DNA of 10,051 bases from positions 1 to 10,051 of the forward strand of contig CAMPGT010000143.1 in NCBI GenBank assembly GCA_946885665.1, written 5' to 3'. The notes under the pieces were generated by a model that saw only the letters and a program-made list of their open reading frames with translations, did not search any database and was not told the origin of the DNA. This document shows positions 629-10,051 of this stretch, in pieces (the stretch's first letter is position 1; each line of letters starts with the position of its first letter). The stretch comes from an uncultured Chitinophagaceae bacterium. GTDB taxonomy: Bacteria > Bacteroidota > Bacteroidia > Chitinophagales > Chitinophagaceae. A program made the position numbers and the translations under genes.

Positions 629-664
629 AAAGATTTTTTTAGTTTAATAAAGAATGGGCCTAAG

Positions 665-1046
665 TTACGGAGAGTTCGTGATGACTTTCTTAAGATTATT
701 TAAGGAAGATTCCATGGACGTTCCAAACTGCTTATCGAAGGTTATACTGCCGAACTTTTCCCAGGGGTACCAACGCAAACGAAAGTCGAAATACCACTGA
801 ACGATGGTAATATTTCCGGAAGGAATAATGTTGAAAACACTATATATCGATGGTGCCGGACGACATGTCGTTCCATTGCTTCCAGTTTGCCGTATCGGCG
901 ATTAACGGCAATACTGTTTCCGGCGGGGCTTCAATGTTAATGGCCCTCGAAATCCGTACCTGCGATGGTATCAGGAGAGACATCAGGTACAAAAAGATGA
1001 AGAATATGATGAAGCTGATGACGGCCAGCTTGAAAAATCGGAACAT
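665..1046 (-). pseudogene. SRPBCC-family (polyketide cyclase-like) gene, internally deleted and frameshifted
   Basis: The minus strand opens at 1046 with an N-terminal membrane anchor (residues 6-26, very hydrophobic) and the usual SRPBCC opening: LIPSQVRISRAINIEAPP, then LIADTANWKQWNDM. The frame then hits TAG at 840-842 after 68 codons. One frame over, from 838 down to TAA at 665-667, 57 codons read as a good C-terminal end of the same family, including IVQWYFDF, RWYPWEKFGS and a final LNNLKKVI. Intact relatives run to roughly 170-180 residues with a middle beta-sheet section between these parts. Here the two ends almost touch, so about 50 codons appear to be missing, with a net frame change. 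This is best read as a deletion remnant rather than one sequencing error. The N-terminal 68-residue peptide could still be made but would lack the fold. The missing length comes from memory of the family, not an alignment. Confidence 0.8.
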
Positions 1047-1060
1047 GGGAGGGAAGTTTT

Positions 1061-1129
1061 AGTGGGGATGGGGAGTGGGAAGTGGGGAGTGGGAATATTA
1101 AACTCCCTACTCCTTATTCCCTACTCCCA
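1061..1129. repeat. Two facing heptamer arrays forming an imperfect inverted repeat
   Basis: On the plus strand 1061-1094 holds five 7-bp units of the AGTGGGA/AGTGGGG type, one of them a base short. After a short AT-rich centre, 1102-1129 holds ACTCCCT, ACTCCTT, ATTCCCT and ACTCCCA. The second array is roughly the reverse complement of the first, so transcripts of either strand could fold into a long imperfect stem with the AT-rich centre as loop. It sits between the permease and the SRPBCC remnant. The right-hand array overlaps the end of the permease gene, whose TAG stop (1121-1123) lies inside the repeat. There is no T run, so it is not a standard terminator. Confidence 0.8.
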
Positions 1130-2227
1130 TTTAAACACCTTTATCGCAATGGCATAAGCCACCACGCCCCAAAGGGCCAGCACGGCCAGTTGCTTGCCGC
1201 AGTCGGTGAGCCGGGCCCCTTCGAACGCCACGTTCCTCATCGCATCATTCAAATGTGTAAGCGGCAAAATTTGACAAAACGGCTGCATCCATTTGGGAAA
1301 ATTATCGATCGGAAAAAACGTTCCCGCCCGCAAGAACTGCGGCAGCGTAAACAGGTTGGCGAAGGGCGGTATGGAACTTTCATTTTTTGCCAGTCCGCTG
1401 ACAACAAATCCAAAGCCCATGAACACTGCCAGCCCAATAAAACTCAATACCAGCAGCTCCAAAAACGTGACCCATCCATTCACAAGCGTAAAATTAAAGG
1501 CATAGTGCCCGATCAACAGGATCACCACCGCTGTACTTAACTGAAAGATCACCCTGCTGAGTGCTTCGCCAAAAACAATATACGACCGGTTAATGGGCGT
1601 TGCGAAAAAGCGTTTAAGCACCAACGTTTGCCGCAAACTGAAAAAAATGAAAGCCACGCCAAATACGCCTGCACTTAACAGTGAAAATCCCAATTGCCCG
1701 GGCAGGATAAAATCTATTGTGCGATACACCCTTCCCGGCACCGTTTCCACTTCGTTGACGATGGTGGCGTAGGTGGGCGCATCCTTATAAATCTTTTTGT
1801 CCATGTTATTGATAAGTCCGTCGAGCATCGACCGCAACACGAGCACATTTTGCGGGTTCACCGCATCGGATGTGATCAGCCTGATGGTGTACGCCGGATT
1901 TTCCGCGGTGTTTTTCCTGATCTGAATAATGGCATTGAGCCTGCCTTTCTCAAGATCGTTTCGAAGCGCCCCTTCATTACCATCTACCACTTTTATTCCG
2001 TTCATCGATGTGATGGCGTGGTACAACGCGGCAGCCGTATCGGTTTGTGCATCAAATCCCACCCGCACCGTAACACCGCCGCCGCGGCCAATGAAGCCGA
2101 AGACAAGGATGAAAATAAGGGGGAACGCAAAACTGAAGATCACTGCACTGGGACTACGGAAGATGGCGCGAAGACTGGCACGTGTGATGGCCAGCATGGC
2201 CCTGAACTGACTGTATGATTTCGACAT
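1121..2227 (-). CDS. ABC-2 type transporter permease
   Basis: This 368-residue protein has the layout of ABC-2 exporter permeases of the YhhJ/YbhR type. There is one transmembrane helix near residues 28-47, a soluble extracytoplasmic domain at about 50-170, and a block of some five helices from about 174 to 363. Recognisable marks are LKRFFATPI at 204-212 after the second helix, AGTFFPIDNFP at 301-311 and LPLTHLNDAMR at 321-331, all typical of this family. It would form the membrane pore for an ATP-driven exporter; the substrate cannot be told. No ATP-binding subunit is present in the window, which is unusual because the ATPase normally lies just upstream. Here sppA is upstream, with only 21 nt between the sppA stop and this ATG. 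The C-terminus ends FKWE, with Glu and the stop codon contributed by a heptamer repeat. Confidence 0.9.
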   Translation of the reverse strand: MSKSYSQFRAMLAITRASLRAIFRSPSAVIFSFAFPLIFILVFGFIGRGGGVTVRVGFDAQTDTAAALYHAITSMNGIKVVDGNEGALRNDLEKGRLNAIIQIRKNTAENPAYTIRLITSDAVNPQNVLVLRSMLDGLINNMDKKIYKDAPTYATIVNEVETVPGRVYRTIDFILPGQLGFSLLSAGVFGVAFIFFSLRQTLVLKRFFATPINRSYIVFGEALSRVIFQLSTAVVILLIGHYAFNFTLVNGWVTFLELLVLSFIGLAVFMGFGFVVSGLAKNESSIPPFANLFTLPQFLRAGTFFPIDNFPKWMQPFCQILPLTHLNDAMRNVAFEGARLTDCGKQLAVLALWGVVAYAIAIKVFKWE

Positions 2228-2248
2228 GTATGTATATACTGTTAATGC

Positions 2249-3997
2249 TTACTCAATGATCATCTCGAACGGCAATCTCGCCTGTGCCTTTCCCAAAAAT
2301 TTTTTCAGGCTCCGAATCGCCGTGTAGGTTTTGTATCCTTCTTCTCCAATTTCATCGCGAATCGCCGCTTCCCTGGATTCGCCCTGGTTGCCAAAAATCA
2401 TTTCCAGCAGACCTTCCTTGCCCGGATATTCACGCAGGTGATACCGCTTCACACCTGCCTTAGCGGCTGCCGAACGAATGGCATCATCGAGTCCGCCGAT
2501 CCGGTCAACCAGGCCTATCTCCAGCGCCCGCGTTCCGCTCCACACCCTGCCCTGCGCAATACTGTCGATATATTCCATTGACTTTTTCCGCCCGGAAGAA
2601 ACCTTCATCTTGAAATTCTGGTAGATCGTATCGATTGAGTTTTGAAAATATCTTTTTTGCAAAGGCGTGAGCGGTTTTGTAACGGTAACAAACCCCGCAT
2701 CGGGCGATGTCTTAACCTCGTCGAAAGTAACGCCCAGTTTATTGTTGAAAAATTTTTCCATGTTAGGGAGAACGCCAAACACGCCAATCGATCCGGTTAT
2801 CGTGTTCGCTTCCGCAAAAATGCTGTCGGCGCCGCAGGCCATGTAGTAGCCGCCCGACGCCGCCACATCGCCAAAACTTACGATCACAGGCTTTACCTTG
2901 CGTGCGAGTATGATCTCGCGCCACATCACTTCGCTGGCCATGGCGCTTCCGCCGCCTGAATTGATGCGCACCACGATCGCTTTTGTTGAATTGTCCATTC
3001 TCGCCTTGCGAATGTAGTTCCTGTAAGTGTCGCCGCCTATCTCTCCCCTGTCTCCTTTGCCATCCAGTATGGTGCCTTCGGCATAGATGACGGCAATTTT
3101 CTCATCACCCGACGGCATATAATCTACCGCCTCCGCATACTTCGAAGGCGTGATGAAATTGATGCCGGCATCTTTATCGATTTTCAAAAGCTGCCGGATC
3201 TCGTCTTTCACCTCGTCGTCATATCGCAGTCCATCAACCATTTTGTACTTCAGTGCATCGGAAGCAAACTGGAGAGCGTTTGAGTCGGCATAACGGTGAA
3301 GCGTAGCCGTATCCATTCTGCGCGACCGGCCAATCGTTGAAAGAAAGTTTCCGTAGAGGTCGTTAAGCAGGGTAATGCTTTGCACCCTGTTGGCGTCCGT
3401 CATTTCCGTTTCGCGCAGCGGCTCGGTGGCGCTTTTGAATTTTCCTGCGTAAAAAATTTGCGGTTCGATCTCCATTTTTTCAAGGGTGCCCTTGATGAAG
3501 GGCATGGTCATGGAGAAGCCGTGCCATTCAATGCCGCCGGCGGGGGCGCAATATATTTTGTCGGCCGCACTCGCCACCAGGTAGGCTTTTTGGGAGATGG
3601 TAGCGCCATAGCCGATCACAAATTTTCCTGCTCTTCTGAAATCAATGATGGCATTACGTATTGCTTCGCTCGATGCAAAATCATTCGCGTTGTTGTCGCA
3701 TTTCAAATAAATACCCTTCACCGAGGCGTCGTTTTTCGCGTGCTGTATGAGACGGGTAAGGTGAGACAGTGAAGGCTGCGCCGACCTGTTATCAGTGATC
3801 TCGGAGATAATATCTGCGGGAGGAATTTCGGGGAAATGTGTCGACAGGTTAACGACCATCACGGCTTTTTCTTCAATGCCAGCTTTCTTCTGCGAAGAGA
3901 TTGCGGCAACCATCACGATGAAGATTACCAGCAACATTCCTGAAAAAACGATCAGGGCCAGCAATGCAGCAAAGAATGACCTGAAAAAATTATTCAT
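2249..3997 (-). CDS. sppA: Signal peptide peptidase SppA, 67-kDa type
   Basis: SppA is a membrane-bound serine protease (family S49) that degrades cleaved signal peptides. Residue numbers here refer to the 582-residue product from 3997. A single N-terminal membrane helix spans about 8-33. Two S49 domains follow, as in E. coli SppA. The first carries AGKFKSATEP, whose second Lys (K188) matches the catalytic lysine of the YKSAVEP motif in E. coli. The second carries INSGGGSA at 345-352 and DVAASGGYYMACGAD at 377-391, with Ser381 as the expected nucleophile. The catalytic dyad is therefore intact and split across the domains as usual. An upstream in-frame ATG at 4027 would add MVHLPAKCCC before the membrane helix. 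I prefer 3997 because a TAnnTTTG promoter box lies at 4016-4023, between the two candidates. The gene is divergent from folK and probably co-transcribed with the permease. Confidence 0.95.
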   Translation of the reverse strand: MNNFFRSFFAALLALIVFSGMLLVIFIVMVAAISSQKKAGIEEKAVMVVNLSTHFPEIPPADIISEITDNRSAQPSLSHLTRLIQHAKNDASVKGIYLKCDNNANDFASSEAIRNAIIDFRRAGKFVIGYGATISQKAYLVASAADKIYCAPAGGIEWHGFSMTMPFIKGTLEKMEIEPQIFYAGKFKSATEPLRETEMTDANRVQSITLLNDLYGNFLSTIGRSRRMDTATLHRYADSNALQFASDALKYKMVDGLRYDDEVKDEIRQLLKIDKDAGINFITPSKYAEAVDYMPSGDEKIAVIYAEGTILDGKGDRGEIGGDTYRNYIRKARMDNSTKAIVVRINSGGGSAMASEVMWREIILARKVKPVIVSFGDVAASGGYYMACGADSIFAEANTITGSIGVFGVLPNMEKFFNNKLGVTFDEVKTSPDAGFVTVTKPLTPLQKRYFQNSIDTIYQNFKMKVSSGRKKSMEYIDSIAQGRVWSGTRALEIGLVDRIGGLDDAIRSAAAKAGVKRYHLREYPGKEGLLEMIFGNQGESREAAIRDEIGEEGYKTYTAIRSLKKFLGKAQARLPFEMIIE

Positions 3998-4015
3998 ACA
4001 ACAACATTTGGCAGG

Positions 4016-4023
4016 CAAATGTA
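4016..4023 (-). promoter_or_regulatory. Bacteroidota-type -7 box for sppA
   Basis: The minus strand reads TACATTTG, an exact match to the TAnnTTTG -7 element of the Bacteroidota housekeeping sigma factor. It ends 18 nt before the sppA ATG at 3997, predicting a leader of about 10-15 nt. A clear -33 TTG at the usual spacing is not visible, which is common. The match supports the shorter sppA start. Confidence 0.55.
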
Positions 4024-4078
4024 CCAATAGGCCCCCGAATACATGGTTTTTTATTGTTTAGCACTTACATTGCAAGCG

Positions 4079-4567
4079 ATGAATTATGCATACTTAATTA
4101 CGGGCGGCAACATCGGCAACCGGGAGCAGGAACTTACTTTTGCCGATAAGCTGGTAGCCGAGCGTTGCGGACATGTTATTGACCGGTCTTCGGTTTATGA
4201 GACGGCCGCATGGGGCAAAACCGACCAGGCCACCTTCCTGAACCAGGCGCTTGTTGTGGAAACGAGCCTGCATGCGAGGGATCTGATGAGCGAAATCCTG
4301 TATATCGAGCACCTGATGGGCAGGGACAGGGTCGAAAAGTACGGACCGCGGATAATTGATATAGATATTATTTTTTTCAATCACCAGATCATCAATCAGC
4401 CGGACCTGGTGGTGCCGCACCCCGAAATGGCTGCCAGAAGATTTGTCCTTGAACCGCTGAATGAAGTCATCCCCGCATATATTCATCCCATCTATTACAA
4501 AACCATTACGGAATTGCTGAAAGACTGCAAGGACGAATCGCCGGTAAAAAAATATCAACCAAGTTGA
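4079..4567 (+). CDS. folK: 2-amino-4-hydroxy-6-hydroxymethyldihydropteridine diphosphokinase (HPPK)
   Basis: HPPK transfers pyrophosphate from ATP to 6-hydroxymethyl-7,8-dihydropterin, the step before dihydropteroate synthase in folate synthesis. The 162-residue product has the family marks in order: LITGGNIGNRE at 6-16 (N-terminal pterin-side motif), SSVYETAAWG at 37-46, FLNQ at 53-56, and the signature KYGPRIIDIDIIFF at 87-100, with Asp94 and Asp96 as the magnesium ligands. VVPHPEMAARRFVLEPL at 111-127 completes it. The open frame extends to an ATG at 4043, but the extra 12 residues are unlike the family and overlap the promoter region of divergent sppA. The ATG at 4079 gives the usual N-terminus. 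A weak -7-like box, TACATTGC, lies only a few nt before that ATG. The stop codon overlaps the start of the kinase gene downstream. Confidence 0.95.
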   Translation: MNYAYLITGGNIGNREQELTFADKLVAERCGHVIDRSSVYETAAWGKTDQATFLNQALVVETSLHARDLMSEILYIEHLMGRDRVEKYGPRIIDIDIIFFNHQIINQPDLVVPHPEMAARRFVLEPLNEVIPAYIHPIYYKTITELLKDCKDESPVKKYQPS

Positions 4568-5196
4568 ATCATCATTTTATTTCAATCGAAGGAAACATCG
4601 GAGCAGGTAAAACAACACTTGCTCACCTGCTCTCAAAGCACCTGAACGCAAGGCTGATACTCGAACAATTTGCAGATAATCCGTTTCTCCCGAAATTTTA
4701 TGAGAACCCGCAGCAATATGCCTTTCCGCTGGAATTGTTTTTCATGGCAGAACGGTACAAGCAGCTTAAGGAGCTGGTGCACACTAAGGACCTTTTTCAG
4801 CATGTGACGGTTGCTGATTACCTGTTCACGAAGTGCCTTCTTTTTGCGAAAGTAAACCTCAAGGATGAGGAGTTCCGGCTGTACCAGAAGCTGTATGACA
4901 TCATCAACCAGCAGTTGATCGCGCCCGATTTGCTGATCTATCTTCATGTTCCGGTGCAAAAGCTGCAGAAGAATATCAGGAAGAGGAACAGGCCGTATGA
5001 ACTGGCAATTCCTGATGAGTACCTGTTTTCGATACAGGAAACTTACACCCATTATATCAAGCAGCATAATATCACAACGCTTTTCATTGATGCGACAAAT
5101 GCGGATTTTCTTGATAATAAGAAGCACATGCAGGTAATTCTCGATGCGCTGGAAAAGGATTATGAAAGCGGGCAGCACTTTTTTTCATTGCCGTGA
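4564..5196 (+). CDS. Deoxynucleoside kinase (dNK family)
   Basis: The enzyme phosphorylates deoxynucleosides with ATP for the salvage route to dNTPs. The 210-residue product carries the P-loop GNIGAGKTT at 10-18, LEQFADNPFLPKFYENP at 33-49 and FPLELFFMAERYKQL at 54-68 (substrate-side helices), VADYLFTKCLLFA at 83-95 (the DY motif of bacterial members) and the arginine-rich lid KRNRPYE at 140-146. Sequence alone does not settle deoxyadenosine/deoxyguanosine versus pyrimidine preference; related Bacteroidota enzymes are usually annotated as purine deoxynucleoside kinases. The start is TTG at 4564-4566, sharing TTGA with the folK stop. The first in-frame ATG downstream (residue 61) would remove the P-loop, so TTG must be used. 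The 4-nt overlap points to translational coupling with folK. A three-unit AGTTAAA repeat begins 4 nt after the stop. Confidence 0.93.
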   Translation: MNHHFISIEGNIGAGKTTLAHLLSKHLNARLILEQFADNPFLPKFYENPQQYAFPLELFFMAERYKQLKELVHTKDLFQHVTVADYLFTKCLLFAKVNLKDEEFRLYQKLYDIINQQLIAPDLLIYLHVPVQKLQKNIRKRNRPYELAIPDEYLFSIQETYTHYIKQHNITTLFIDATNADFLDNKKHMQVILDALEKDYESGQHFFSLP

Positions 5197-5200
5197 AGAA

Positions 5201-5221
5201 AGTTAAAAGTTAAAAGTTAAA
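5201..5221 (+). repeat. AGTTAAA heptamer array after the kinase gene
   Basis: Three perfect tandem copies of AGTTAAA begin 4 nt after the stop codon of the deoxynucleoside kinase gene. Because 7 is not a multiple of 3, the TAA in each unit falls in a different reading frame in successive copies, so 21 bp gives a stop in all three plus-strand frames. The same repeat family occurs in inverted orientation at 5851-5878, on the other side of the YkgJ gene. Confidence 0.85.
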
Positions 5222-5244
5222 ACTGAAGAACCTCTCACTCATGA

Positions 5245-5348
5245 TTGCCCTTTGCCCTTTGCCGTTCACAGGTCCACCCCCGGCGCTTCGCGCCACCCCC
5301 GCCAGCGGGGGATATCTCCCGTCTCACATCTCACGTCTCACGTTTCCT
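5245..5348 (+). repeat. Mosaic intergenic repeat, copy 1 (short form)
   Basis: Three parts lie in order. First, 5245-5265 has three 7-bp units of TTGCCCT type. Second, 5272-5315 is a 44-bp GC-rich core containing two potential hairpins: GGCGC/GCGCC around a 3-nt loop, and CCCCCG/CGGGGG around a 4-nt loop. Third, 5316-5348 begins CTCCC and continues with GTCTCAC, ATCTCAC, GTCTCAC and GTTTCCT. The core matches 9774-9817 at 43 of 44 positions, and both flanking heptamer types recur there in the same order. An open frame runs through this block into the YkgJ gene, but its translation (PPPALRATPASGGY) comes from the repeat and is not protein-like. Confidence 0.88.
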
Positions 5349-5356
5349 TACCTTTG
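5349..5356 (+). promoter_or_regulatory. -7 box directly upstream of the YkgJ-type gene
   Basis: TACCTTTG matches TAnnTTTG exactly and ends 7 nt before the ATG at 5364. At normal Bacteroidota spacing, transcription would begin at or a few nt before the start codon, so the mRNA would be leaderless or nearly so. The heptamer array of the mosaic repeat runs right up to this box. No -33 TTG is visible upstream, where the sequence is all GTCTCAC repeat. Confidence 0.45.
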
Positions 5357-5363
5357 CCCCAGC

Positions 5364-5846
5364 ATGCAGGATCTTCTTCACAACTGGGAAAAGAAATCGC
5401 GCGAGAGAAAGAAACTTTACCGCCAGCACCTTAAGCGTGCAGATAAAAACGCCGTGCTGAAAGCCCTCCCCGAACTTCACGAACAGGCCTTCGAAAAAAT
5501 CGACTGCCTCAAATGCGCCAATTGCTGCAAAAATTATTCGCCCCGTTTTAAAACACCCGACATAAAAAGAATCTCGCGCCATCTTAAAATGAAGGAGGGC
5601 CAGTTCATCGACCAGTATTTAAAACTCGATGAAGACGGCGACTATGTCGTGAAATCAACACCCTGCCCTTTTTTGGGCGCAGATAATTATTGTTCGATTT
5701 ATGAAATGCGTCCGTCGGATTGCCACCGCTTTCCGTACACGGATGAAGATGTCATCGTTAAACGGCAGGATCTCACGATTAAAAATTCAGCATTCTGCCC
5801 CATCGTTTATTACGTTCTCGAAGGATTAATGACAAAGAAGATATAA
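5364..5846 (+). CDS. YkgJ-family cysteine cluster protein
   Basis: The 160-residue soluble protein belongs to the YkgJ/CxxCxxCC family, thought to bind zinc or an iron-sulfur cluster; its reaction is unknown. The N-terminal 45 residues are charged and helical (WEKKSRERKKLYRQHLKR). The core has CLKCANCC at 48-55, then CPFLGADNYCSIYEMRPSDC at 101-120, then Cys145 in SAFCPIVYY, making eight cysteines, all in family positions as I recall them. HRFPY at 121-125 is also typical. The frame is open back to an ATG at 5241, but that extension is encoded by the mosaic repeat. A TAnnTTTG box just before 5364 and the family-like N-terminus support starting at MQDLL. Only 17 nt separate its stop from the converging hydroxylase gene. 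Confidence 0.9.
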   Translation: MQDLLHNWEKKSRERKKLYRQHLKRADKNAVLKALPELHEQAFEKIDCLKCANCCKNYSPRFKTPDIKRISRHLKMKEGQFIDQYLKLDEDGDYVVKSTPCPFLGADNYCSIYEMRPSDCHRFPYTDEDVIVKRQDLTIKNSAFCPIVYYVLEGLMTKKI

Positions 5847-5850
5847 CCCT

Positions 5851-5878
5851 CAACTTTCAACTTTCAACTTTTAACTTT
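5851..5878 (-). repeat. AAAGTTG/AAAGTTA heptamer array overlapping the hydroxylase stop
   Basis: On the plus strand the block reads CAACTTT three times and TAACTTT once, running into a T tract. On the minus strand it is the AGTTAAA/AGTTGAA family also seen at 5201-5221. The minus-strand hydroxylase frame enters the array and stops there: the TGA at 5864-5866 and the last four residues, KVKS, are written by the repeat. It occupies the whole convergent gap between two genes. Confidence 0.85.
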
Positions 5879-6694
5879 TTTTTCCCATCCCGGGGGCCCA
5901 AACACGTACCTCAGCTTGTCTCTCCATCCAATATCTTTTTTCTTTACATCTTTCCAGATATTGATCCACTCGTGAAAAATAACCGTGTACAAACCTTCAT
6001 CTTTCAAAGGCTTTGAAAGTCCGTACCGGATCGGTTCATATTCTTCGGCCGTGAGCTCGCGCTGGAAAGTGCCGAACAGCCTGTCCCAAATGATGAGCAC
6101 CATGCCCATATTGCGATCGATATATTTCGGATTGGACGCGTGATGCACGCGGTGATGCGACGGCGTAACAAAAACAAATTCGAGCCAGCCGAGTTTACGG
6201 ATCACCTCCGTGTGTACAAACACTGCCCATATTTGTGCAATCGAGTACATCAGCAATATTTCGATCGGCCTGAAGCCGAGCAGCGGCAGTGGAAGAAAAA
6301 ATACAAAATCGTACAACGGGCGCATCAGCGAAGCGCGAAAGCCAACCGTAAGGTTCATGTGTTCGGCCGAATGGTGCGTAACATGCGCCGCCCAAAAAAC
6401 GCGGCAGAAATGTTCGAGCCGGTGCAGCCAGTAAAATTGAAAATCGATGAGTAAGAAAAGGGTAAACCAATACCAGAAAGTGCTCGTGATCTCGATCAAC
6501 CGGAACTGGTACACAAAAGTGAAGATGAGGAGGTATGCGCCTCTTACCGCGAGGTCGAGCAATCCATTAACGAGCGACAGGAAAATCGTCGTGAGCGTTT
6601 CCCGCCAGGTGTACAGCTTCCTGTGCTGAAAATTACTGATGCATACCTCCAGGCCTATGACAATCAAATAAATAACCGAGACCTTCCAGTTCAT
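5864..6694 (-). CDS. Fatty acid hydroxylase / sterol desaturase-family membrane enzyme (alkylglycerol monooxygenase-like)
   Basis: This is a 276-residue integral membrane di-iron oxygenase. Hydrophobic segments lie near 5-20, 37-66, 74-90, 127-150 and 150-163. The eight or more metal-binding histidines are present in the usual pattern: HRLEH at 91-95, HVTHH at 104-108, His161 in VHTE, and HHRVHH at 180-185. The stretch WAAHVTHHSAEHMN and the block TPSHHRVHHASNP, followed by LIIWDRLFGTF, resemble the alkylglycerol monooxygenase branch more than C-4 sterol oxidases. That suggests action on an ether lipid or fatty acyl chain; the substrate is inferred. The last residues (KVKS) and the stop come from a heptamer repeat, so the original C-terminus may have been altered. 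It is divergent from gcvP, with a 125-nt gap between the start codons. Confidence 0.9.
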   Translation of the reverse strand: MNWKVSVIYLIVIGLEVCISNFQHRKLYTWRETLTTIFLSLVNGLLDLAVRGAYLLIFTFVYQFRLIEITSTFWYWFTLFLLIDFQFYWLHRLEHFCRVFWAAHVTHHSAEHMNLTVGFRASLMRPLYDFVFFLPLPLLGFRPIEILLMYSIAQIWAVFVHTEVIRKLGWLEFVFVTPSHHRVHHASNPKYIDRNMGMVLIIWDRLFGTFQRELTAEEYEPIRYGLSKPLKDEGLYTVIFHEWINIWKDVKKKDIGWRDKLRYVFGPPGWEKKVKS

Positions 6695-6706
6695 TGACTA
6701 CACTTT

Positions 6707-6812
6707 AACGGTTAACTTTTGCAAAAATTGAACCTGTTGCCAACAATTTAACAAACAAATGTTAGTCTGCGCGTTTCTCTTAACTTTGCAAAACTTTTGA
6801 ACAACGGTTAAC
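6707..6812. promoter_or_regulatory. Duplicated motif pair in the hydroxylase-gcvP divergent region
   Basis: The decamer AACGGTTAAC occurs at 6707-6716 and again at 6803-6812, 96 bp apart, one copy near each start codon. A second duplicated string lies between them: TTAACTTTTGCAAAA from 6712 and TTAACTTTGCAAAA from 6780, each followed within a few bases by TTGAAC. The second copy contains a good -7 box. These could be operator sites for a shared regulator or the trace of a promoter duplication. No glycine riboswitch structure is seen here. Confidence 0.4.
6781..6788 (+). promoter_or_regulatory. -7 box for gcvP
   Basis: TAACTTTG matches TAnnTTTG exactly. It ends 31 nt before the gcvP ATG, predicting a leader of about 25 nt. 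TTAG at 6762-6765 is the nearest thing to a -33 element, at shorter spacing than usual. Confidence 0.5.
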
Positions 6813-6819
6813 CTCATTT

Positions 6820-9693
6820 ATGAACTTATTTGAAAAACAAAGGAAAGAATTTCAGGACAGACATATAGGTCCCGACGAAAATGAAACGTTGGAAATGCTC
6901 AAAACGATTGGCAAAAGATCACTTGACGAACTCATCAGCGAAACCATCCCCGCCGACATCCGCACCACGAAAGAACTCGACGTTCCACAGGCACAAAGCG
7001 AATACGAATACCTCAATCACCTGAAGAATATCGCCGCCAAAAATAAAATTTTCAAATCGTATATAGGTCAGGGTTATTATGCAACCATCACTCCAAACGT
7101 TATCCTGCGCAATGTTTTTGAAAACCCGGGATGGTACACCCAGTACACGCCGTACCAGGCGGAAATATCGCAGGGAAGGCTCGAGAGCCTGCTGAACTTC
7201 CAGACGATGGTTACCGACCTTACCGCCCTGCCATTGGCCAACGCGTCGCTGCTCGACGAGGCCACCGCTGCCGCCGAGGCCATGAGCATGATCTTTCACC
7301 AGGTGAACAGGACGGACGAAAAAAAGCAGCCAAAATTTTTTGTTGACAGCAATATCTTTCCCCAAACGAGGGACGTCATCCTTACCCGCGCCGAACCGAT
7401 TGGGATAGAAGTGGTGACCGGTAACTTTCAGGATTCCGAACCCGATGGATCCTGGTTTGGCGCCATCGTGCAATATCCCAATAATCATGGCTCGGTAGAA
7501 GATCACCGGGCGTTCATAGAAAAGGTTCACGGTGTTAACGGTTACGTGGTGATGGCGACCGACCTGCTGGCGCTTACACTGCTCAGCCCTCCCGGCGAGC
7601 TGGGAGCGGATGTGGCCGTAGGATCGGCGCAGCGCTTTGGCGTACCCATCGGCTACGGTGGCCCGCACGCCGCATTTCTCGCTGCTAAGGATGAATTCAA
7701 AAGAGGCATCCCCGGACGGATCATCGGTATTTCTGTTGACGCCACGGGACAAAGGGCGCTGCGCATGGCGCTTCAAACAAGGGAGCAGCACATCAAAAGA
7801 GAAAAGGCCACGTCCAATATTTGCACCGCCCAGGCTTTGCTCGCGAATATGGCAGCGATGTATGCCGTTTATCACGGTCCCGAGGGACTGAAATCGATCG
7901 CTACCCGTGTGGCGATTCTTACCCATACTTTGGATGACGAGCTGGAACAACTCGGCTACGAGCAACTAAATAAATGCTATTTCGATACGCTGCGTATAGT
8001 GGTTGACGATGCAGAGGCTATCAGGGCGATTGCTGAAAAGCACCAGGTGAATTTCCGTTACTTCGATGGCAAACATATCGGCATCTCGCTCGACGAAACG
8101 ACCCTGCCCGAAGATGTGCTCGACATTATTTCGATTTTCGAGGAAGCGATGGGACGAAATACGGCCTCGGTAACTTTCGACTCCGAGATGGAACTCGATC
8201 ACCTGCCGGTTAGTCTATTGCGGAACGCTGCATTTCTCACGCACTCTGTGTTCAATGCGCACCGCAGTGAGTCGGAAATGATGCGGTACATCAAGCAGCT
8301 CGAAAACCGCGATCTTTCCCTGAACACTTCCATGATACCGCTAGGAAGCTGCACGATGAAACTCAATGCCGCCACCGAGCTGATCCCCTTAAGCTGGCCG
8401 GCTTTCAGCGAGCTGCACCCGTTTGCTCCTGTCAACCAGGCGGAAGGCTACCGCCAGATCACCGATGAGCTGAGCGCTTTTCTTTGTGAGATCACCGGAC
8501 TGGACGCCTGTTCGCTGCAGCCAAACAGCGGCGCGCAGGGCGAATACGCAGGATTGCTGACGATTCGCAGCTATCACATCGACCGGGGCGACATGCATCG
8601 CAACGTTGTGCTCATCCCTATTTCGGCGCATGGAACCAACCCTGCCAGCGCCGTGCTGGCCGGGATGAAAGTGGTGGTGGTAAAAAGCGATGAAGACGGA
8701 CATATCGATGTTGCCGACCTGGAAGCGAAGGCAAACCAACACAAAGATTCACTTGCTGCGCTGATGGTCACCTATCCTTCAACCCATGGTGTTTTCGAAG
8801 AGACCATCAAAAGGGTCTGCGAAATCATCCATGAAAATGGCGGGCTGGTGTACATGGATGGCGCCAATATGAACGCCCAGGTGGGCCTTACATCGCCCGG
8901 AAACATCGGTGCAGATGTGTGCCACCTCAATCTTCATAAAACATTTGCCATACCGCATGGCGGCGGCGGACCGGGAATGGGGCCCATCTGCGTGAATGAG
9001 CACCTTGCCGCGTTTTTACCCGGGCATATTTCCATCAACAAAAAGGCAAAAACGGCGAACGCAGTTAGTGCCGCGCCTTACGGGTCAGCGAGCATACTGC
9101 TCATCAGCTACGCATACATCAGGCTGCTGGGCGCCGAGGGGCTCAAGAAAGCCACCGAATATGCCATCCTGAATGCGAACTACATGAAGGCCAGGCTGGA
9201 GAAATACTTCAAGATTCTTTTCCTCGGCAATAACGGCACCTGCGCCCATGAGTTCATCGTTGACCTGCGGCCCTTCAAATCATCGACCGGGGTAGAAGCG
9301 GAAGATGTGGCGAAAAGACTCATGGATTATGGGTTTCATGCGCCCACTATGAGTTTCCCGGTGCCGGGAACGATTATGATCGAGCCCACAGAAAGCGAAC
9401 CGAAAGCCGAACTCGACAGGTTTTGCGATGCGCTGATCAATATTTATGAGGAAATCAGGGCGATTGAATCGGGTAAGGCGGATAAGACGGATAACGTGCT
9501 CATGAATGCGCCGCATACCATGCAGATGGTTGCCGCTGATGAGTGGAAGCATTCTTATTCACGGCAGGAGGCGGCGTTTCCGTTGGCGTATGTGGCCAGG
9601 AACAAGTTTTGGCCATCGGTGGGAAGAATTAATAACACCTATGGTGACAGGAACCTGATTTGCACCTGCGAGCCCACTGAAGCGTATGTTTGA
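6820..9693 (+). CDS. gcvP: Glycine dehydrogenase (aminomethyl-transferring), P-protein of the glycine cleavage system
   Basis: The P-protein decarboxylates glycine using PLP and passes the aminomethyl group to the lipoyl arm of the H-protein, feeding one-carbon units to tetrahydrofolate. The 957-residue chain is the single-polypeptide form with both homologous halves intact. The N-terminal half shows DRHIGP near 14-19, [20 protein letters not shown] from 109, GYGGPHAAF and ATSNICTAQ. The C-terminal half shows [11 protein letters not shown], the [11 protein letters not shown] block from about 568, HGTNPAS at 604-610, and [15 protein letters not shown] with the PLP lysine at 707. The C-terminus ([22 protein letters not shown]) is complete. 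Length and motifs are normal, and the ATG at 6820 is the family start. gcvT and gcvH are not adjacent in the window, which is common. No clear terminator follows; a T-rich stretch at about 9708-9719 lacks a good stem. Confidence 0.98.
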
Positions 9694-9737
9694 TACAGGA
9701 GGGAAATTTTTTTCTTTTTAGACCCACTGACTACTCT

Positions 9738-9966
9738 TTGCATATTAGCTATTGCCTACTGCCCATTGCCTACGTCCACCCCCGGCGCTCCGCGCCACCC
9801 CCGCCAGCGGGGGATATGTTGCGCTTTTGCGGGAAACCTCACGCCTGCGGTTTACTATCCCCCTCTGGAGGGGGTGGTCCCGACGAAGGAGGGATCGGGG
9901 GAGGACTCCCGTCTCACGTTTCACGTCTCACGTCTCACGTCTCACGTCTCACGTCTCACGTCCGCA
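9738..9966 (+). repeat. Mosaic intergenic repeat, copy 2 (long form)
   Basis: This fills most of the gene-free stretch after gcvP. Part A (9738-9772) is five 7-bp units: TTGCATA, TTAGCTA, TTGCCTA, CTGCCCA, TTGCCTA. Part B (9774-9817) is the 44-bp double-hairpin core, with one mismatch to 5272-5315. Part X (9818-9905) is 88 bp absent from copy 1. It holds a stem CCCCCT/AGGGGG at 9859-9874 and a looser CCCGA/TCGGG pair at 9879-9899. Part C (9906-9966) starts CTCCC like copy 1 and carries seven GTCTCAC-type units (the second is GTTTCAC), then a decayed eighth. Open frames through the block only translate the repeat. Confidence 0.88.
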
Positions 9967-10051
9967 AACAGCCCCAACCGCAGGGAATGATCGAACGCTT
10001 CGCTGCTGTGCCGGAAATGGCAAACCGCCACGCCGGAGGCCTTGATCCTCT
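9942..10051 (-). CDS. Possible C-terminal fragment of a minus-strand gene, unidentified
   Basis: One minus-strand frame is open from the window edge to TGA at 9942-9944. It reads RIKASGVAVCHFRHSSEAFD, then HSLRLGLFAD, then VRRET, which is repeat-encoded. Up to LFAD the third codon positions are strongly G/C (about four in five), as in gcvP, and the composition is protein-like. Competing frames are poorer, though a plus-strand frame starting ATG at about 9988 (MIERFAAVPEM) cannot be excluded. I do not recognise the family. If real, its stop lies in the GTCTCAC array, as with the permease and hydroxylase genes and their arrays. Confidence 0.4.
   Translation of the reverse strand, partial: RIKASGVAVCHFRHSSEAFDHSLRLGLFADVRRET

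What the first reader, a model, noticed from the sequence alone, without database searches (positions are those of the whole stretch)
1061..9966. Intergenic gaps are filled by unrelated tandem repeats that all have a 7-bp period
Six separate arrays have an exact or near-exact 7-bp unit but different sequences: AGTGGGA/ACTCCCT (1061-1129), AGTTAAA (5201-5221), TTGCCCT (5245-5265), GTCTCAC (5321-5348 and 9911-9966), CAACTTT (5851-5878) and TTGCCTA (9738-9772). A shared period with unshared sequence suggests a mechanism or selection that fixes length rather than sequence. Heptanucleotide short tandem repeats (STRRs) are known from cyanobacteria; I cannot say whether this Bacteroidota set has been described.
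Basis: partly seen in the sequence, partly recalled or inferred. Interest (0 to 1): 0.72.

Follow-up and report, generated by a model that had tools for sequence, protein, structure and literature searches.

The report
Drifting seven-base repeats between genes
Gaps between genes in this bacterium hold DNA repeated every seven letters; in related bacteria such stretches come, go and swap their letters while keeping the seven-letter step, which looks like a fast-changing copying by-product rather than a new genetic system.

Summary
The 7-bp arrays are real: four perfect runs against 0.02 expected. The window's genome is not held, so wider tests used relatives. In samples of three array-rich genomes 93%, 68% and 89% of tandem runs have period 7 or a multiple; one also has an 8-bp family, and a 20-genome survey shows no dominance of 7. 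"Unrelated" is wrong: units of a genome are mostly one substitution apart, neighbouring arrays keep register in 48 of 53 pairs, and window arrays include copies and inverted copies. Between sister species one gap holds an array, other units, or none. Best explanation: satellite-like turnover by whole heptamers plus point mutation, so period is inherited while sequence drifts, tolerated mainly just past stop codons. Why seven is unsolved. Heptanucleotide excess and a similar layout are published for other bacteria; register-keeping unit turnover, mostly without G-tracts, looks new. A gene bracketed by inverted arrays lies opposite to 31 of 32 relatives, suggesting array-mediated inversion. Transposase and MutS-loss ideas found no support.

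The parts
1061..1129 (.). Inverted heptamer arrays: purine arm AGTGGGG/AGTGGGA (1061-1093), pyrimidine arm ACTCCCT (1102-1128); the stop codon of the ABC-2 transporter gene (1121-2227 -) lies in the array
   Evidence: TRF; hairpin over 1071-1128, -33.4 kcal/mol, z -4.27 for 1047-1129 on the - strand; ORF
5199..5222 (+). AAAGTTA array, 3.4 copies, 2 nt after the stop codon of the deoxynucleoside kinase gene
5245..5263 (+). TTGCCCT array, 2.7 copies; left part of composite copy 1
5272..5315 (.). 44-bp G+C-rich palindromic element, copy 1 (98% identical to copy 2), between two arrays
   Evidence: the repeat finder D1; two predicted stems
5315..5343 (+). TCTCACG (GTCTCAC) array, 4.1 copies, upstream of the YkgJ-like gene; right part of composite copy 1
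5364..5846 (+). CxxCxxCC (PF03692, YkgJ-like) gene (start codon chosen by me), bracketed together with composite copy 1 by the inverted arrays 5196-5222 / 5855-5881, and opposite in strand to 31 of 32 relatives
5850..5878 (-). TCAACTT array (purine strand AAAGTTG on -), 4.1 copies, in the convergent gap; gives the stop codon of the fatty-acid hydroxylase gene (5864-6694 -)
9751..9773 (+). Degenerate TTGCCTA / TACTGCC tract of about three units; left part of composite copy 2
   Evidence: lag-14 run; not reported by TRF at score >=30
9774..9817 (.). 44-bp G+C-rich palindromic element, copy 2
   Evidence: the repeat finder D1
9906..9962 (+). CTCACGT (GTCTCAC) array, 8.1 copies; right part of composite copy 2; on the - strand all three frames entering from the right edge stop within it
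   Evidence: translation of 9901-10051 -

Best explanation
The arrays are satellite-like tracts that grow, shrink and are replaced by whole 7-bp units (replication slippage or unequal recombination), in DNA that tolerates them: mainly the gap just after a stop codon. New units arise by point mutation inside an old array and are amplified in turn, so the 7-bp register is inherited while the sequence drifts; related arrays also stand at other gaps of the same genome. The arrays host palindromic elements and can pair as inverted repeats, which probably flipped the YkgJ-like gene here. Shown in relatives: period bias, unit networks, shared register, presence/absence and unit replacement between sister species. 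Inferred: slippage or recombination as the enzymology, the spreading route, the inversion, and that the window behaves like its relatives. Not explained: why 7 is favoured over 6 or 8.
For: Period spectra: G146, 400 kb: 39 runs at 7, 11 at 14, 2 at 21, 4 at all other periods 2-30; G635, 200 kb: 50/22/10/3 at 7/14/21/28 against 11 at all other periods 3-30. Unit networks: 92% of 12 classes (G146), 100% of 23 (G023), 100% of 8 (G670) and 62% of 8 (window) lie within one substitution of another, against 24%, 47%, 44% and 27% for letter-permuted units. Register: 48 of 53 separated neighbouring array pairs in phase, 1/7 expected. Turnover: a 210-bp stretch of G635, holding most of a 174-bp run of GTGAATR units, is lacking between flanks 84-89% identical in G670 and G671; elsewhere about 40 ATTGACY units in G635 face ATTTACG/ATTCACC units in G670 (flanks 88-94%); another gap has heptamers in G635 and G670 and none seen in G671.
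Against: Slippage alone does not explain the 7-bp preference or the purine polarity (58 of 70 pieces at 3' ends). Substitutions fall unevenly within units, in similar fashion in two genomes (GGATGNN family), which could mean a conserved core; founder variants copied many times could also do this, and the GTGANNN profiles differ between genomes. An 8-bp family with the same look exists in G023. On mean distance the network test is not significant for G635 (p = 0.08), G048 (0.087) and G251 (0.197). All turnover evidence comes from one genus of relatives, not from the window's genome, and at locus A the sites lacking the array are not clean empty sites but carry other degenerate repeats.
Confidence: 0.62

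Rival explanations
1. The arrays are selected 3'-end elements: purine-rich RNA after the stop codon followed by a pyrimidine-rich arm forms a hairpin or a binding platform that ends transcription, protects mRNA or stops read-through translation; a protein taking one heptamer per subunit would fix the step.
For: Nearest gene end is a 3' end in 70 of 109 pieces from six genomes (control fractions 0.42-0.50 by genome; p = 5e-4 against 0.48), and the purine strand is in sense there in 58 of 70. In G635 and G670, not used to form the idea, 13 of 16 are in sense (p = 0.011) and 16 of 25 are nearest a 3' end (p = 0.066). Uneven column conservation in GGATGNN units. Hairpin z -4.27 at 1047-1129. Xanthomonas and Nostoc arrays have a similar layout.
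Against: Of eight window stretches folded, only 1047-1129 is clearly more stable than shuffles (next z -1.69, six others -0.04 to 1.63); none of the 9 T-tailed terminator matches lies at an array; sister species lack arrays at the same genes; placement after stops is also where insertions should harm least. Unit and copy number change freely. Pieces of one locus are not independent.
Confidence: 0.2
2. The arrays are spread by a transposase, for example REP-associated tyrosine transposases (Y1_Tnp) acting on inverted arms and palindromes.
For: Composite copies and palindromes between arrays in the window, nested palindromes in G146. First look: strong Y1_Tnp hits (85 bits or more) in 7 of 10 array-bearing against 1 of 14 other genomes, p = 0.002.
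Against: That threshold was chosen after seeing the data, and the array content of most of the 14 was not measured. With rule and 80-bit threshold written down before the search: 17 of 28 array-positive against 12 of 28 array-negative genomes, p = 0.28.
Confidence: 0.08
3. G-quadruplex formation is the selected property, as considered for the GGGAATC and GGGGAYT arrays.
For: Similar layout in Xanthomonas and Nostoc; the 1061-1093 arm is G-rich.
Against: Only 25 of 244 period-7 runs in six genomes have GGG or CCC in the unit (0 of 39 in G146, 20 of 123 in G023, 4 of 9 in G048). AAAGTTA, AAAGTTG and CGTGAGA in the window have no G-tract of three.
Confidence: 0.03
4. Loss of mismatch repair lets the arrays grow in some genomes.
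For: Arrays of a given unit are concentrated in a minority of genomes.
Against: MutS_V domain found in 24 of 24 genomes, array-bearing or not; the best hit is weak (4e-32) only in G031, which is not among the array-rich ones. That loops of 7 nt largely escape MutS is recalled, not tested.
Confidence: 0.04

Closest known systems
Heptanucleotide long simple sequence repeats of bacteria (Mrazek et al. 2007, known to me only through PMC4679880 and PMC4692102)
   Same: Period 7 is described there as the commonest class among these repeats in most genomes; slippage with a 7-nt polymerase contact was proposed.
   Different: Here several related units share one genome and register, and units are replaced between sister species.
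GGGAATC arrays of Xanthomonas and GGGGA(C/T)T arrays of Nostoc (Rehm et al. 2015, PMC4692102; passages and sections 10 and 16 seen)
   Different: There one type of G-tract unit is described per genome; here many units, most without GGG.
TAACTGA direct repeats of Beggiatoaceae, Cyanobacteria and some Bacteroidetes (MacGregor 2015, PMC4679880; abstract, passages and section 12 seen)
   Same: Heptamer arrays between genes; other heptamers in the same gaps in Gramella forsetii and A. sublithincola; close relatives with shorter gaps and no obvious arrays.
   Different: There one unit, mostly just before start codons; here after stop codons.
Cyanobacterial STRR heptamers (recalled; no paper read, one search found none)
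   Same: Tandem heptamers in intergenic DNA.
   Different: Not compared in sequence.

Membership tests
Bacterial heptanucleotide simple sequence repeats | Perfect or near-perfect 7-bp tandem units beyond chance | tested here: met
   4 perfect runs against 0.02 expected; TRF
Bacterial heptanucleotide simple sequence repeats | Genome-wide excess at period 7 | tested here: inconclusive
   Window's genome not held. Seen in samples of relatives G146, G023, G635 and in 44 loci (13 of 25); 7 not dominant in a 20-genome, 311-kb survey
Xanthomonas/Nostoc-type G-rich heptamer arrays | Unit with a G-tract able to form quadruplexes | tested here: not met
   GGG/CCC in 25 of 244 runs over six genomes; most window units lack it
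Xanthomonas/Nostoc-type G-rich heptamer arrays | Next to the preceding stop, purine/G strand in sense, inverted pairs | tested here: met
   In relatives: 70 of 109 nearest a 3' end, 58 of 70 of these in sense; inverted pairs in 9 of 12 stretches printed; window
TAACTGA repeats | Tandem unit TAACTGA | tested here: not met
   Not among the units TRF lists in the window
REP/BIME elements with their tyrosine transposase | Linked transposase | tested here: inconclusive
   No significant association: 17 of 28 against 12 of 28; presence in the window's own genome not testable
Rfam RNA families | Match at gathering score | tested here: not met
   0 matches in the window

The most novel reading that the evidence does not exclude
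A replication- or recombination-linked activity in Bacteroidota copies DNA in steps of exactly 7 nt (8 nt for a second family), preferring a short core such as GATG or GTGA plus variable letters, so that the length of the step and not its sequence is what the machinery fixes; the resulting arrays also drive gene inversions.
Probability: 0.12. Interest if true: 0.85.

Novelty: new variant of a known kind. Interest (0 to 1): 0.5.

Why it matters
Why heptamers dominate the longer simple repeats of bacteria has a proposed but untested answer, as far as the papers I saw tell. A genus in which sister species hold no array, a short array and a long array of other units at the same place (G671, G670, G635) makes the question testable: one can see which step is made, at what rate, and from what seed. 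It also separates the shared layout from G-quadruplex formation, and suggests a source of small gene inversions.

Tried and rejected
Shared vocabulary across genera: the window's ACGTCTC class is in 5 of 248 Chitinophagales genomes, the backwards-read control in 2 of 248 (p = 0.45). GTGARTR is in 30 of 395 Bacteroidia, its control in 16 of 395 by my count of the table (p = 0.047). AAAGTTR was in 0 of 33 relatives. Two of 8 window unit classes occur in G023, a genome picked without regard to unit sequence (p = 0.01). Sharing is weak and I do not build on it.

A universal unit consensus (NGKNRRD): 59% of 74 classes against 37% permuted, but classes are not independent and the pattern was found after the fact; dropped.

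Y1_Tnp and MutS: see rivals. Terminators: no pattern match at arrays. The core of the 44-bp palindrome: 0 of 248 Chitinophagales genomes at up to 2 mismatches. Close relatives of G146 and G023 for site comparison: none close enough (best identity over coding flanks 70% and 74%). The two viral contigs that matched the TCACGTC pattern (L072, L073) were not read.

Limits of my own measures: G146, G161, G152, G251, G048, G035, G283 and G635 were picked because they hold particular units, G670 and G671 as congeners of G635, G258 through the backwards control, G023 and G020 because their peptidase loci have heptamer runs; only (survey part) are free of such picking. Genes in relatives were called by a simple ORF rule. 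32 of 141 array pieces fell inside ORFs >=100 aa, some of them true coding repeats; an earlier count found 16 of 65 blocks inside ORFs >=80 aa, while merged loci of G146 gave 0 of 21. Array pieces more than 400 bp from any ORF or at segment ends were dropped uncounted. The register test was not limited to pairs with different units.
Full report
Where the window lies. Its genes are DUF2911, an ABC-2 transporter subunit, signal peptide peptidase (S49), HPPK, deoxynucleoside kinase (dNK), a CxxCxxCC (YkgJ-like) protein, a fatty-acid hydroxylase and glycine dehydrogenase. The peptidase is 62% identical to that of a Chitinophagaceae MAG (L001), the best of 44 loci. No genome is held for the window.

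The arrays. Perfect lag-7 runs of at least 10 matches number four against 0.02 in simulations. The arrays are related to each other. 5196-5222 and 5855-5881 are inverted copies, 89% over 27 nt. 5272-5315 and 9774-9817 are copies of a 44-bp palindromic element (98%), and both stand between a TTGCC-type and a GTCTCAC array. 1071-1128 folds as one hairpin (z -4.27 for 1047-1129); the other seven stretches folded do not stand out in this way. Two genes end inside an array, and all three frames entering from the right edge on the minus strand stop in the GTGAGAC array.

Is it more than this window? In 44 loci brought in by the peptidase (738 kb), 13 of 25 runs have period 7; shuffles gave one run in all. 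In G146, found through the GTCTCAC-class pattern, 400 kb hold 39 runs at period 7, 11 at 14, 2 at 21 and four others. G023, picked because its locus L025 has heptamer runs, has 74, 27, 5 and 2 at 7, 14, 21 and 28 in 420 kb, but also 32 at 8 and 10 at 16, an AAATGNGG family. G635 has 50, 22, 10 and 3 in 200 kb against 11 others. Against this, 20 stretches from 20 genomes of the order (311 kb) show 4 runs at 7, 4 at 4 and 4 at 8. The dominance of 7 is therefore a property of some genomes.

Anatomy. In 400 kb of G146 none of 21 merged array loci lies inside an ORF of 100 aa or more; with a looser piece-wise count over six genomes 32 of 141 do. The nearest gene end is a 3' end in 70 of 109 intergenic pieces (controls 0.42-0.50 by genome; p = 5e-4 against 0.48). 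The purine strand is in sense with that gene in 58 of 70 (p = 1e-8); at 5' ends it reads away from the gene in 24 of 39, not significant. Taken alone, only G146 reaches p < 0.05 for the 3' preference. In G635 plus G670, which were not used to form the idea, the counts are 16 of 25 (p = 0.066) and 13 of 16 (p = 0.011). In 9 of the 12 G146 stretches printed a purine arm is followed by a pyrimidine arm, around a core of about 10 to 220 bp.

How units relate. Units of one genome are mutational neighbours: within one substitution of another for 92% of 12 classes in G146 (null 24%), 100% of 23 in G023 (47%), 100% of 8 in G670 (44%), 62% of 8 in the window (27%; p = 0.037 on mean distance); G635, G251 and G048 are not significant on mean distance. 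Separated neighbouring arrays keep register in 48 of 53 pairs. Mismatches between adjacent units are uneven by column, with similar profiles for GGATGNN units in G146 and G023, but GTGANNN profiles differ between genomes.

Turnover seen directly. Six genomes are held of the genus of G635; two have GTGARTR arrays. At locus A, G635 has 174 bp of GTGAATR units that begin one base after the stop codon of a gene; in G670 the flanks abut, in G671 they lie 3 bp apart, and both carry a degenerate 8-bp-step tract there. At locus B, G635 has GTGAATR, CAAATGA and AACTAAT units, G670 fewer and other heptamers, G671 none that I see. In C55 about 40 ATTGACY units in G635 face ATTNACG/ATTCACC units in G670, which contain a few ATTGACC copies. 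This looks like amplification of a minority unit with the step kept. MacGregor 2015 (section 12) reports close relatives with shorter gaps and no obvious arrays for Gramella forsetii and A. sublithincola.

A gene flipped between arrays. In window orientation the YkgJ-like gene is on the minus strand in 31 of 32 relatives' loci and on the plus strand here; dNK is plus in 40 of 40. L001, the closest relative, has dNK, YkgJ and the hydroxylase in the same order with YkgJ alone reversed. The inverted arrays bracket this gene together with the composite element upstream of it. Inversion by recombination between arrays is inferred, from one case.

Explanation and rivals. Unit turnover with an inherited register accounts for a shared period with drifting sequence. 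It does not account for 7 itself; the polymerase-contact idea of Mrazek 2007, seen only through PMC4679880 and PMC4692102, remains open. A selected 3'-end role is the main rival. G-quadruplexes are disfavoured (25 of 244 runs with GGG or CCC), MutS loss too (MutS_V in 24 of 24), and a Y1 transposase link failed a test whose rule was written down first (17 of 28 against 12 of 28).

What is known. Excess of heptanucleotide repeats in bacteria, the layout close to the preceding ORF, inverted pairs and length variation between species are published for Xanthomonas and Nostoc or cited there (PMC4692102). Searches in the held library listed no study of heptamer arrays across Bacteroidota beyond PMC4679880; most subscription papers are not in it. 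I therefore call this a new variant of a known kind.

Noticed in passing
window 5364-5846: YkgJ-like gene lies opposite to 31 of 32 relatives and is bracketed by inverted heptamer arrays; the fatty-acid hydroxylase gene is also reversed relative to 16 of 17 relatives, in common with L001.
   Followed up: partly
window 660-1046: A short reading frame (840-1046, minus) ends early while the downstream part stays open in another frame, so this gene may be frameshifted.
   Followed up: no
G023:C2 (L198, L214-L231): A second tandem family with an 8-bp step (AAATGNGG); of 32 runs in C2, 26 lie more than 1 kb from the nearest 7-bp run.
   Followed up: partly
window 9850-9905: G+C-rich palindromic tract (CCCCCTCTGGAGGGGG and CCCGACGAAGGAGGGATCGGG) between the second 44-bp element and the GTCTCAC array (fold).
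   Followed up: no
L087 2125-2469 (G146:C1:262125-262469): A Y1 transposase gene followed by several GTGCTCC/GGAGCAC-type palindromes, as in REP-transposase units (the REP comparison is recalled).
   Followed up: no
G635:C3 about 7,400-9,600 (L274) and G670:C223: Repeats built from heptamers (ACAAATAACAATGAGCAAATA type) inside one open frame of 2148 codons in G635 (3472-9915), so arrays also occur in coding DNA.
   Followed up: partly
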